A stretch of 64,000 nucleotides of DNA from Acholeplasmataceae bacterium (GTDB lineage: Bacteria; Bacillota_I; Bacilli_A; Acholeplasmatales; Acholeplasmataceae). The notes beneath the pieces are model-generated. The model did not search any database and was not told the origin of the DNA. It saw nothing but the letters and a program-made list of their open reading frames with translations. The stretch covers positions 1 through 64,000 of the forward strand of contig RECG01000016.1 of NCBI GenBank assembly GCA_007692425.1, written 5' to 3'. Positions within the stretch are counted from its first letter, which is position 1. Every line of letters starts with the position of its first letter. Positions 5,328 to 9,544 of the stretch are shown in pieces. The position numbers and the translations under genes are program-made.

Positions 5328-6710
5328 TTACATATGGATGGGCTTGTCAATCGCACCATGCGCGGCTTCCATCATGATTTCTGAAAGCGTAGGATGGGCA
5401 TGGATGGTGCTGGCGATTTCATAAGCGGTGCCTTCAAGTTCAAGGACGACACCGACTTCGGCAATCATCTCAGAAGCGTTATAAGCAAGAATGTGCGCAC
5501 CGATGATTTCCTTGTATGTTTCATCGACGATCAGTTTGACAAAACCATCTTTTTCGTTTTCAGACAAGGCGCGGCCGTTAGCGGCAAGCGGGAAGGTGGA
5601 GACCTTGAAGGTCTTGCCTTGTGCTTTCGCTTCTGCTTCCGTCAGACCGATGGTCGCGATTTCCGGTGACCCGTAGACTGCATTGGGTACACGGCTGTAT
5701 TTCAGGGTTGCCTGCTTGTGTCCGAACAGGTTCTCAACTGCGACCAGTCCTTCCGCTGAAGCAACGTGGGCAAGCATGTATTTGCCGTTGACATCACCGA
5801 TGGCGTAAACGCCGGGGATGTTGGTCTCGAGCTTGTCGTTGGTTTCGATGCCTTGTTTCGAGGTTTTCAGATCAAGGGCTTCGAGTCCACCCAGGTTGGC
5901 GCGCATGCCGACCGAAAGCAGGATGACATCCGCTTTGACGGTGTGGTCCTTGCCTTCATGAGCATAAGTGACTTCTTGATCCTTGACAGCCTTGACTTCA
6001 GCGTTGGCGAAAATCTCGATGCCGTCTTTTTTAAGAATCTTGGTATAGGCATCACGGATATCCTGGTCCATGTTAGGGAGGATGCCGTCAAGCTTTTCGA
6101 TGATGGTCACCTTGGTGCCGAGTGGTGAGAAGATGGTGGCGAACTCGCAACCGATCACACCACCGCCAATGATGACCAGGTGTTTGGGAATGTCATCAAC
6201 GACCAATAACTCGCGGCTGGTCTTGACAATGCCTTTTTCAAGGCCTTCTTTCAAACCTGGAATAGGTGGCACGATGGGACTCGCCCCGGTGGCGATGATC
6301 AGATGTTTGGTTTCCAATGTCTCGTCATTGACAGAGACTTTTTTCGGATCAATGACCTTCGCTTCACCTTTGAAGACATCCACACCGTTTTTCTTGAGCA
6401 GGGCTGACACCCCGCCGGTCAGTCGTTTGACGACCGAATCCTTGCGTTTGAGCATGGCTTTCCAGTCGACTTTGATTTCACCGTCGATGACGATGCCGTA
6501 TTCAAGCGCTTGTTTGACGGTCTTGTAGACCTTGCTGTTTTTAAGTAATGTCTTGGTGGGGATGCAGCCGTGGTTCAAACAGATGCCGCCGACGGCTTCT
6601 TTCTCGATCAAAGCGACCTTGGCACCCAGTTGGGCTGCCTTGATGGCCGCGACATAACCGCCCGGACCGCCGCCGATGACAATCAGATCATAGGTCTTCA
6701 CATGTATCAT
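5328..6710 (-). CDS. pdhD: Dihydrolipoyl dehydrogenase (E3 of pyruvate dehydrogenase)
   Basis: FAD flavoprotein of 460 aa that reoxidises the dihydrolipoyl group of E2 with NAD+. The FAD-binding GGGPGGYVAAIKAAQLG is near the N-terminus, followed by the redox disulfide in GGICLNHGCIPTK (about 40-52), the NAD-binding GGGVIGCEFA (about 180), AIGDVNG and the C-terminal HAHPTLSE with the catalytic His-Glu pair. Length is typical. The ATG has no strong ribosome site. The region just upstream is occupied by the IS110-family element that separates this gene from pdhC; without the insertion the pdhC-pdhD gap would be only about 40 bases, so pdhD was very likely the last gene of a pdhABCD operon. Confidence 0.93.
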   Translation of the reverse strand: MIHVKTYDLIVIGGGPGGYVAAIKAAQLGAKVALIEKEAVGGICLNHGCIPTKTLLKNSKVYKTVKQALEYGIVIDGEIKVDWKAMLKRKDSVVKRLTGGVSALLKKNGVDVFKGEAKVIDPKKVSVNDETLETKHLIIATGASPIVPPIPGLKEGLEKGIVKTSRELLVVDDIPKHLVIIGGGVIGCEFATIFSPLGTKVTIIEKLDGILPNMDQDIRDAYTKILKKDGIEIFANAEVKAVKDQEVTYAHEGKDHTVKADVILLSVGMRANLGGLEALDLKTSKQGIETNDKLETNIPGVYAIGDVNGKYMLAHVASAEGLVAVENLFGHKQATLKYSRVPNAVYGSPEIATIGLTEAEAKAQGKTFKVSTFPLAANGRALSENEKDGFVKLIVDETYKEIIGAHILAYNASEMIAEVGVVLELEGTAYEIASTIHAHPTLSEIMMEAAHGAIDKPIHM

Positions 6711-6730
6711 GTAAGATTTAAACTGTATTA

Positions 6731-6738
6731 AGTTAGTC
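6731..6738 (+). repeat. AGTTAGTC copy at the left edge of the IS110 element
   Basis: AGTTAGTC occurs here and at 8247-8254, flanking the transposase and its non-coding ends. The crossover core should lie within these 8 bases. A third copy at 6874-6881 lies inside the element, within the candidate bridge RNA. Confidence 0.6.
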
Positions 6739-6744
6739 CTTAAG

Positions 6745-6930
6745 ACAGATAAATCTTATCTCCTTTCCCACTAATTTAATATACTAATAATGTACTGTGG
6801 ATCTGTGTCATTTGTTTACAGCCTTGACTGTTTTGAGGTGACGCTTACCACGGTCTTTATTTTAATCAGCAATAGTTAGTCAGCGCCAGACGCTTATTAC
6901 ATGATTATGAAAATAAGGACTCGATGGACT
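6745..6930 (+). ncRNA. Candidate bridge RNA of the IS110 element
   Basis: IS110-group leaders encode a bridge RNA with paired target and donor guides. Three guide-like segments appear in the expected order. TGAGGTGAC (6834-6842) is the reverse complement of the right target flank at 8252-8260. AATAGTTAGTCA (6871-6882) is identical to the right end and core at 8244-8255. TAAGGACT (6914-6921) is the reverse complement of the left end and core at 6735-6742. I could not find an equally good left-target guide. The 5' and 3' limits are estimates. Confidence 0.55.
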
Positions 6931-6967
6931 TACCACATGTACGAAAACACTTTTAGGAGGTGTGCTT

Positions 6968-8128
6968 ATGATCCATATCGGCATCGATGTCTCAAAGTAC
7001 AAGCACGATTGTTTTATCGCCACCGAAACAGTCAGTCACCAGTTCTCATTTGAGAACAATCAGTCTGGGTTTAAAGAACTGTTAGATAAGCTTAAACCCT
7101 ATTCCAAGCAAGAAATGATAATAGGCTTGGAGGCCACAGGTCACTACGGTGAAAACCTGAAATCATTTCTCACCCTCCATGGCTGTTCGTTCATGGAGAT
7201 CAATCCCTTTCTCGTGAAGAAGTTTGGAGAAGCCAATTCACTGAGAAAGACAAAGACGGACAAGAAGGATGCACAGCTGATTTCAACGTATTTGAGGTCT
7301 GTGGACTACAAAGCCTATCATCATCAATCTTACCACATAAGCGCATTGAAGTCACTGACCAGGTTGCGTTCCAAACTCATCTCGATGCGTACTAGACACT
7401 ACAACATGATGACCAAGGTCCTGGATGTCATCTTCCCCGAGTATAAGCCCTTCATGCATGAACGGGGCTATTCTGAGACATCCTTGTACATCTTGAAGCA
7501 TTATTCGTCCCCGGGTAGAATCGCCAAGCTGAATGATGATCATCACGACAAGCTTCACAGACTTTCAAAGGGCAAATTCAGTTATCCCAGGTTTGTAAAA
7601 CTAAGGGAGCTCGCAAAATCAACCATCGGGGTGGCACAGGATCATCAACTCTTCAAACTCAAAACGTCTATCTCTCACGTTGGGATGTTAACCAAAGACA
7701 TCGATGAGACGGAAAGGCAAATCGCATCATTGATGGACAGGTATCCCACCAAGATCCAAACCATCAAGGGCATCGGCATCATCTCCGCAGCCATCATCCT
7801 ATGTGAATATGGGGATATCTCGCTCTTCTCGAATCCCGCCGGGATGTTATCCTATGCGGGACTCGATTCGACCATCAAGCAATCCGGAACGATGTCTTCT
7901 ACGGGCAGGCTTGTCAAGCGAGGCAGCAAATATCTGCGTGCCGCGCTCATCAACGTCTGCATGATGGTCATGATCTACAATCCCGTGTTCTATGCTTATT
8001 ACTCGAAGAAGAAACAAGAGGGTAAGCATCACCGTGTCGCTCTCGTTCATTTAGCCAAAAAGCTCATAAGAGTGATTCATCACCTTGAAACAAACCAAGA
8101 AGATTTCGATTCGAAGAAGATGAAATGA
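6968..8128 (+). CDS. IS110-family transposase (DEDD recombinase)
   Basis: Intact recombinase of 386 aa. The N-terminal RuvC-like domain shows HIGIDVSKYKHDC with the first Asp, GLEATGHYGENL with the Glu, and KTKTDKKDAQLI with the later Asp residues. The C-terminal Transposase_20 domain shows IKGIGIISAAIIL, LSYAGLDS and SGTMSSTGRLVKRGSKYLR, which holds the conserved serine region. The ATG at 6968 is preferred over the GTG at 6962 because AGGAGG lies 7 bases ahead of it. There is no frameshift or stop, so the element may still be active. It is transcribed towards pdhC, opposite to the pdh operon. Confidence 0.92.
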   Translation: MIHIGIDVSKYKHDCFIATETVSHQFSFENNQSGFKELLDKLKPYSKQEMIIGLEATGHYGENLKSFLTLHGCSFMEINPFLVKKFGEANSLRKTKTDKKDAQLISTYLRSVDYKAYHHQSYHISALKSLTRLRSKLISMRTRHYNMMTKVLDVIFPEYKPFMHERGYSETSLYILKHYSSPGRIAKLNDDHHDKLHRLSKGKFSYPRFVKLRELAKSTIGVAQDHQLFKLKTSISHVGMLTKDIDETERQIASLMDRYPTKIQTIKGIGIISAAIILCEYGDISLFSNPAGMLSYAGLDSTIKQSGTMSSTGRLVKRGSKYLRAALINVCMMVMIYNPVFYAYYSKKKQEGKHHRVALVHLAKKLIRVIHHLETNQEDFDSKKMK

Positions 8129-8179
8129 CAAATTACTTAAACTGTGGCGGTTGAGTAAAAGTCATCTAAAACAACAGCT

Positions 8180-8212
8180 AACCTCTAAAATATTGGGCTA
8201 TGGGAGGTTTTT
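8180..8212 (+). terminator. Hairpin with T-run after the transposase
   Basis: AACCTC (8180-8185) pairs with GAGGTT (8204-8209), followed by a short T-run, in the right end of the IS. It is a likely transposase terminator and may also be an end-structure of the element. Confidence 0.45.
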
Positions 8213-8257
8213 ACTGTGTTATCTATAAAAGTGCTTGACTTTTAATAGTTAGTCACC

Positions 8258-9544
8258 TCAGTTTAATAGTAACATCATCGGGTCGTTTAATAAAGACTTG
8301 ATCGTATTTAAGAATCTGCCGGCATCCGCGCCATCGATGACGCGGTGGTCGACAGCCAGCGACAAGGGCAACATGTAAGCGACCTTGATGGCGCCGTTTT
8401 CAACGACCGGTTTCTGGGCGATCTTGCCGATGCCGAGGATGGCGACTTCAGGATGGTTGATGATGGGTGTGCCGTAAGCAACATCCGCGGCCCCGAAATT
8501 GGTGATGGTGAACGTCGAGTTCTGCAGTTGGCTGAGCTGGACTTTGCGGGCGATGGTGTCGTCGGCGAGACTTCTTAACTCTTTCGCAAGTTCGAGGATA
8601 CTCTTTTGATCGACGTCCTTGATGTTGGGGACGATCAAACCGTCAGGCGTGTCAACCGCCATGCCGATGTTGATGAATTTTTTTAAGACCATACGGTCAT
8701 TTTCAGCATCAAAACTGGCATTGAAGTTCGGATATTGTTTGAGCGCGAGCACGAGAGCACGCATGACAAAAGCCATGTAGGTGACCTTGATGCCTTCGGC
8801 CAAAGGACTGTTTTTGACCTGGTTGCGTAAATCGACCAGTTTATCGACATTGACTTCGTCCATCAAGACGGTGTGCGGGATGATCTGCTTGGCCAGCGTC
8901 ATGCTCTTGACAATGGCCTTGCGTAATTTGGTGATTGGCACCAGCTCGACATCGCCTTGGGTTGAAATCTTCACCTTTGGTGTTGCCGGTGCGGTGGTCT
9001 TGGACGTGGAAGCGAATGCTTCGATGTCTTCTTTGAGAACACGGCCGTTTTCACCGGTGCCAGGCACCTGTCTGATATCGACACCAAGATCCTTGGCGAG
9101 TTGGCGAGCGACCGGTGTGGCGAGGACCTTGCGGTCTTCATCGACAGCGACAGCTGCTTCAAACTCGTTGCTGCTTTCCATGACGTCGGAAGAGACCTCG
9201 ATCTGGCCAATGACACCTTGGTCACCATCGCCTTCAGCGAGTTTTTCTTCTTTTTCAGCCTTTTCTTCGGTTGGTTTTGTTTCTTCTTCTTTAGGTGCTT
9301 CACCACCGGTACCGTCATCGATGATGACAATCGTCTCACCGACATGGATGGTCTCGCCTTCGGCGGCGCCGATCTTGACGATCACGCCATCGGCGGGAGC
9401 CGGTAGTTCGGCATTGACTTTATCGGTTTCAACGACGACGAGCGTGTCGCCTTCCTTGACCTTGTCACCGACCTTGAAATACCATTTCAGCACTTGTCCT
9501 TCGTGGATGCCTTCACCGATATCGGCGAATTTAAAATCATACAT
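8258..9544 (-). CDS. pdhC: Dihydrolipoamide acetyltransferase (E2 of pyruvate dehydrogenase)
   Basis: E2 core of 428 aa that transfers acetyl groups to CoA. One lipoyl domain spans residues 1-77 with the lipoylated Lys42 in ETDKVNAE. A Glu-rich/Ala linker follows, then a peripheral subunit-binding domain ([16 protein letters not shown]...[11 protein letters not shown]), a second linker, and a catalytic domain ending in [13 protein letters not shown] with the catalytic His at about 400. AAAGGAGGAACCC supports the start. It is third in pdhABC, 14 bases after pdhB. Its TGA stop lies in the flank used as the IS target (GTCACCTCA on plus), so the last bases touch the insertion site. Confidence 0.93.

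What the first reader, a model, noticed from the sequence alone, without database searches (positions are those of the whole stretch)
6731..8260. IS110 element with a readable bridge RNA: three of four guides match the element ends and its target
In the leader of the transposase, three short segments, in the order expected for target then donor guides, match what they should pair with: TGAGGTGAC (6834) against the right target flank GTCACCTCA (8252), AATAGTTAGTCA (6871) with the right end plus core (8244), and TAAGGACT (6914) against left end plus core AGTCCTTA (6735). All three converge on the same core within AGTC. Bridge RNAs that direct IS110 recombination are established knowledge; assigning one here, and reading the insertion-site specificity from it, is new inference. 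A left-target guide was not found.
Basis: partly seen in the sequence, partly recalled or inferred. Interest (0 to 1): 0.75.

Follow-up and report, generated by a model that had tools for sequence, protein, structure and literature searches.

The report
Jumping gene guided to ribosome-binding sites
This is a complete IS110-type jumping gene whose own guide RNA carries a ribosome-binding-site sequence, so that it and its relatives insert just in front of the start codons of host genes; the element is of a known kind, but this reading of its target is new.

Summary
The element is an intact IS110-group insertion sequence (386-aa DEDD/serine recombinase) with a bridge RNA in its leader. Comparison with 29 distinct left ends and 63 element/target pairs places the true ends at a CA core (6708-6709 and 8254-8255). 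RTG (TGAGGTG, plus handshake AC) and LDG (AATAGTTAGTCA) are right and covary with target and donor. The proposed RDG (TAAGGACT) is not conserved; the real one is TTACATG (6897-6903). No LTG signal was found.

Rejoining the flanks gives GAGGTGATACAT-GTG, the Shine-Dalgarno and start codon of pdhD, matching empty pdhC-pdhD junctions in relatives. All 29 insertions lie 4-7 nt from a start codon. Relatives' RTGs read different registers of the Shine-Dalgarno sequence and match their own targets (3.63 of 4 bases; 2.36 when permuted). A covariance model finds the RNA in 69 of 72 further loci, with strong compensatory change. IS900 is a known precedent for targeting translation starts. Transcription and transposition are inferred.

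The parts
6710..8255 (+). IS110-group insertion sequence, 1546 bp counting one CA core
   Evidence: Ends from alignment of independent copies and from empty sites
6708..6709 (.). CA core at the left junction
8254..8255 (.). CA core at the right junction
6699..6707 (-). Left target flank; GTG start codon of pdhD at 6699-6701, 6 nt from the core
   Evidence: row L162
8256..8260 (-). Right target flank CCTCA, i.e. TGAGG of the Shine-Dalgarno of pdhD, overlapping the pdhC stop codon
6726..6945 (+). Bridge RNA (predicted; transcript ends inferred from structure)
   Evidence: Structure counts and covariance model; fold z -3.75
6726..6781 (+).
6796..6852 (+). Target-binding loop: base 6796-6800 with 6848-6852, hairpin 6818-6821 with 6828-6831
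6834..6840 (+). Right target guide TGAGG plus core complement TG; a Shine-Dalgarno sequence
   Evidence: Permutation test over 46 unique guide/target pairs
6841..6842 (+). Handshake guide AC, complement of donor GT next to the core
   Evidence: mechanism from PMC11208158
6805..6810 (+). Only candidate place for a left target guide (GTGTCA, contains CA); no pairing signal
   Evidence: negative
6871..6882 (+). Left donor guide AATAGTTAGTCA, same as right end plus core 8244-8255
   Evidence: Covaries with the right end in relatives
6882..6894 (+). Donor-binding-loop hairpin AGCG/CGCT
6897..6903 (+).
8235..8240 (+). -35-like TTGACT; 17 nt from the -10-like box across the circle junction
   Evidence: activity inferred
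6712..6717 (+). -10-like TAAGAT of the circle-junction promoter
   Evidence: activity inferred
6968..8128 (+). IS110 recombinase, 386 aa; D7, E55, D98, D101, S306

Best explanation
An intact IS110-group insertion sequence that moves by bridge-RNA-guided recombination into Shine-Dalgarno sites. Excision gives a circle whose joined ends form a promoter for the bridge RNA (inferred). The donor-binding loop recognises the circle junction through LDG AATAGTTAGTCA and RDG TTACATG. The target-binding loop recognises the target mainly through a Shine-Dalgarno-like RTG (GAGG plus core TG) and helps strand exchange through a handshake pair (AC with the donor's GT). The left half of the target is barely specified: the CA core, and a T before it that fits the donor-loop handshake. 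Insertion therefore lands between a host gene's Shine-Dalgarno and its start codon, in one orientation; here upstream of pdhD. Shown from sequence: ends, guides and their covariation, RNA structure, target class. Inferred: transcription, circle, catalysis, effect on pdhD.
For: Ends and CA core from independent copies and empty sites. RTG matches its own target far better than permuted targets, overall and within core classes. LDG and RDG change together with the element ends. RNA structure keeps pairing through changes on both sides in loci outside the model. All 29 left flanks put a start codon 4-7 nt from the core; 27 open an ORF of at least 40 codons, against 13% at random positions. RTGs are pieces of the Shine-Dalgarno sequence. 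Recombinase with IS621-like catalytic residues.
Against: Nothing was measured: no RNA, circle or transposition data. The window copy is single in its genome, so its own mobility is not shown. Guide GAGGTGA sites precede ATG only about half the time in a relative, so the start-codon bias needs selection or an unseen left-side reading. A few divergent insertions have no start codon at the expected distance (L078, L093).
Confidence: 0.88

Rival explanations
1. One reading: ends at 6731 and about 8255, core in AGTC, RDG TAAGGACT, target CTGTATTAAGTTAGTCACCTCA.
For: The strings are present, and AGTTAGTC occurs at both places.
Against: Independent copies share 23 bp further left; relatives read AGTTAGTAC or AGTTAGATC there; empty sites differ from the prediction; the RDG match is not conserved and is expected in 5% of shuffled leaders.
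Confidence: 0.02
2. The recombinase chooses ribosome-binding sites by protein recognition or because they are accessible (transcribed, intergenic), and the RTG resemblance is secondary.
For: Start codons follow the insertion more often than the guide sequence alone would give.
Against: Different RTGs insert in different registers of the Shine-Dalgarno and match their own targets base by base.
Confidence: 0.05
3. The start-codon bias is only survivorship: the element goes wherever its RTG matches, and cells with insertions inside genes or 16S rRNA are lost.
For: Half of GAGGTGA sites in G035 are not before an ATG; the 16S 3' end fits the guide but is uninterrupted; no LTG signal.
Against: A T before the core in 26 of 29 targets suggests some reading on the left. 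This is compatible with the main explanation and concerns only how sharp the targeting is.
Confidence: 0.5
4. As proposed for IS900, the element targets translation starts in order to borrow the host's ribosome-binding site for a gene on its own complementary strand.
For: After insertion the host's GAGG faces into the right end on the minus strand; such a proposal exists for IS900 (Doran 1997, as cited in PMC8141618).
Against: The longest ORF on the complementary strand inside the element is 68 aa and none starts near the right end.
Confidence: 0.03

Closest known systems
IS621 (IS110 group, bridge RNA; PMC11208160, PMC11208158)
   Same: Recombinase domains and catalytic positions; bridge RNA in the left end with a 5' stem-loop, target loop and donor loop; RTG, LDG, RDG and handshake positions in the same order; dinucleotide core; promoter formed at the circle junction.
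   Different: Core CA or CT in this clade; RTG carries the target information and no LTG is detectable, whereas IS621 uses a long LTG and a short RTG; target is a Shine-Dalgarno site instead of REP-type sequence; outer closing stem around both loops.
IS900 (IS110 family, Mycobacterium avium subsp. paratuberculosis)
   Same: Inserts at CATGNNNNNNTCTCCTT, that is between a Shine-Dalgarno and a start codon, in the same orientation (PMC8141618).
   Different: No bridge RNA account of that targeting was found in the papers searched; IS900 has a complementary-strand hed ORF, which is absent here. IS900's sequence was not compared.
seekRNA elements (IS1111 type and ISEc21; PMC11187229)
   Same: A non-coding RNA of the element selects target and orientation; guides are naturally reprogrammed among relatives.
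   Different: IS1111 members carry the RNA downstream of the transposase and have subterminal inverted repeats of 7-17 bp; here the RNA is upstream and no shared inverted run over 6 nt was found at the ends.

Membership tests
IS110 family, IS110 group | DEDD RuvC-like domain plus Transposase_20 domain with catalytic serine | tested here: met
   Pfam PF01548 and PF02371 above cut-off; residues aligned to IS621
IS110 family, IS110 group | Long non-coding left end upstream of the recombinase encoding a structured bridge RNA | tested here: met
   258 nt between left end and start codon; structure with covariation
IS110 family, IS110 group | Guides complementary to target and donor, each including the core | tested here: inconclusive
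   RTG, LDG and RDG met; LTG not detected
IS110 family, IS110 group | Scarless insertion at a dinucleotide core without longer target duplication | tested here: met
   Rejoined flanks with one CA match the layout of empty junctions
IS110 family, IS110 group | Circular intermediate with a promoter across the joined ends | not testable with these tools
   Sequence TTGACT-17-TAAGAT is present; circle and activity need experiment
IS1111 group | Guide RNA in the right end and subterminal inverted repeats of 7-17 bp | tested here: not met
   RNA is in the left end; longest shared inverted run at the ends is 6 nt
IS900-like targeting | Insertion between Shine-Dalgarno and start codon | tested here: met
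   IS900 motif from PMC8141618
IS900-like targeting | Complementary-strand hed ORF spanning the element | tested here: not met
   Longest complementary ORF inside the element 68 aa

The most novel reading that the evidence does not exclude
An IS110 clade spread through Acholeplasmataceae and other Bacilli and Clostridia has settled its bridge RNA on the Shine-Dalgarno sequence. It reads its target from one side (RTG plus handshake, no functional LTG), which gives it a motif present about a hundred times or more in the two genomes counted, usually between genes, with the RTG moving among registers of that motif. The same could explain IS900.
Probability: 0.6. Interest if true: 0.65.

Novelty: new variant of a known kind. 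Interest (0 to 1): 0.55.

Why it matters
Bridge RNAs are a new recombination tool, and what natural ones aim at is poorly mapped. A clade that reads one of the most universal short motifs in bacterial genomes would give a guide-level reason for the old observation that IS900 goes to translation starts. It also offers many natural guide-target pairs, including handshake covariation, for testing how little of the left target is needed. And it implies that such elements repeatedly separate genes from their ribosome-binding sites.

Tried and rejected
Rfam has no family matching the leader. LTG: all offsets of the candidate region were compared with 25 left targets; none stood out from permutation. 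A hed-like ORF was looked for and not found. The idea that the left end (CATG) always supplies a new in-frame start codon was dropped: it is in frame in 13 of 28 insertions, not clearly above one third. In divergent relatives the left end could be placed for only part of the set, and placements resting on 5-nt matches are unreliable. IS900 itself could not be fetched for comparison.

Full report
WHAT WAS CLAIMED. All three strings are present. The ORF is an intact 386-aa recombinase with DEDD_Tnp_IS110 (4e-38) and Transposase_20 (1e-21) domains. Its only solved relatives found by sequence are ISCro4 and IS621, and D7, E55, D98, D101 and S306 fall at what I take to be the IS621 catalytic positions (alignment, numbering; the IS621 residue numbers are from my own knowledge except S241, which PMC11208158 names). 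It is the only IS110 element found in this genome.

WHERE THE ENDS REALLY ARE. Homologous elements occur in 21 of 88 genomes of the same family, several in multiple copies at unrelated sites. The two ends meet the host at a CA core, 6708-6709 and 8254-8255. Rejoining the flanks with one CA gives, on the pdh coding strand, TATTAAACTGAGGTGATACATGTGAAGACC (the first attempt was off by one base at the right core). Empty pdhC-pdhD junctions in relatives have the same layout, for example TATTAAATTGAGGTGATTATAAATGAAGACA and TATTGAGTTGAGGTGATTTTCCATGAAAACA. The segment read as 'left end plus core' is the 5' strand of the bridge RNA's first stem.

THE GUIDES. In 63 distinct element/target pairs, from this family and from relatives about 50% identical in protein, the RTG lies just after the target-loop hairpin and reads its own target. 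Over 46 unique guide/target combinations the mean match over the four bases after the core is 3.63, against 2.36 when targets are permuted (p about 5e-5). The same holds within CA cores, within CT cores and within the close family. The core complement changes with the core (TG/CA 40, AG/CT 23), and the next two bases change with the donor end (AC/GT 43, GC/GC 18, AT/AT 2). These last two counts are not independent of how the guide was anchored (on the best match to donor plus core), but the offset is constant for each core class in 60 of 63. These two bases are where the handshake guide of IS621 lies (PMC11208158). Related sequences share history, so permutation p-values are not exact probabilities.

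The LDG changes together with the donor end in several relatives (AGTAAG, AGCTAG, AGTTGG, AGTTAA; L110 is an exception). The RDG is TTACATG, complement of the left end CATGTAA, and becomes TTACGTG where the left end is CACGTA. TAAGGACT is not conserved, and an equal match arises in 5% of shuffled leaders. No left target guide was detected: in 25 copies no position or offset stood out from permutation, although guide diversity in that set is low.

THE RNA. A 43-pair structure written for the close family pairs 99.3% of cells in 13 distinct leaders. A covariance model from those 13 finds the RNA in 69 of 72 further loci (E at most 1e-3 for 68 and 0.003 for one, plus one weak minus-strand match). 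There 92.9% of cells pair, 38 of 43 pairs show changes on both sides, and the covariation score is 0.446, against 0.170 for shuffles and at most 0.08 for slid controls. That alignment was fitted to the model, so the counts lean towards the structure, but the margin is large. The weakest helix is the one next to the donor guides (71% of cells paired). The window's own leader folds better than shuffles (z -3.75). Joined as a circle, the ends read TTGACT-17-TAAGAT, a junction promoter of the kind reported for IS621 (PMC11208160).

THE TARGET. Each of 29 distinct left flanks places a start codon (26 ATG, 3 GTG) 4-7 nt from the core on the minus strand. For 27 it opens an ORF of at least 40 codons; of the other two, one runs off its contig after 9 codons and one closes after 15. 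Random positions in the same flanks give 13%. Divergent relatives with a well-placed CA-core left end mostly show the same, for example GGAGATGATATAATG and AGAGGTGAAATATATG, with exceptions such as L078 and L093. The RTGs are pieces of the Shine-Dalgarno sequence in different registers (GAGG-TG, GGAGA-TG, GGAG-TG, AAGG-AG, TAGG-AG); the mean longest run shared with AGAAAGGAGGTGATCC is 5.15, against 3.60 for shuffled guides. In relative G035, GAGGTGA occurs 171 times, 8 of them expected in the four element copies, and GAGGTGA-N3-6-ATG 89 times. So the guide alone would give start codons about half the time. The stronger bias seen must also reflect loss of cells with insertions inside genes, or some reading of the left side. 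A T before the core in 26 of 29 targets fits the AT that follows the RDG, where the donor-loop handshake would lie. The 16S 3' end, GGATCACCTCCTTT, also fits the guide, and two uninterrupted copies are present in each of four relatives.

WHAT IT DOES HERE. The insertion separates pdhD, the only close homologue of that gene found in this genome, from its Shine-Dalgarno, which stays at the pdhC stop codon. The left junction offers an ATG in frame with pdhD, but in other copies that frame is right only about half the time, so this is likely luck. The effect on pdhD is not known.

COMPARISON. By nearly every tested feature this is an IS110-group element with a bridge RNA; the one open feature is the LTG. 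Targeting of translation starts is known for IS900 (motif CATGNNNNNNTCTCCTT, PMC8141618). What I did not find in the papers searched is a guide-level account of Shine-Dalgarno targeting, or a clade whose RTG moves among registers of that motif without a detectable LTG. That library holds open-licence papers only, so the absence is weak evidence.

VERDICT.

Noticed in passing
16S rRNA 3' ends in G035, G005, G019, G027: GGATCACCTCCTTT matches the guide, core and AT preference, yet two uninterrupted copies are present in each of these genomes; the RTG, being a Shine-Dalgarno sequence, could in principle also pair with ribosomes.
   Followed up: partly
L153 (G019:C1:1129900-1134000), second element at G019:C1:1132089-1133389: A second copy lies directly beside a full one, lacks its leader and so its bridge RNA, and its right end is followed by TGTAAC, close to but not the same as a left end.
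   Followed up: no
window 5328-6710: pdhD is the only close homologue of its kind found in this genome, and its Shine-Dalgarno has been cut off by the insertion; how it is translated is open.
   Followed up: partly
window 6955-6962: The recombinase's own ribosome-binding site, AGGAGGTG, contains the guide's target GAGGTG, so the element is a potential target of itself.
   Followed up: no
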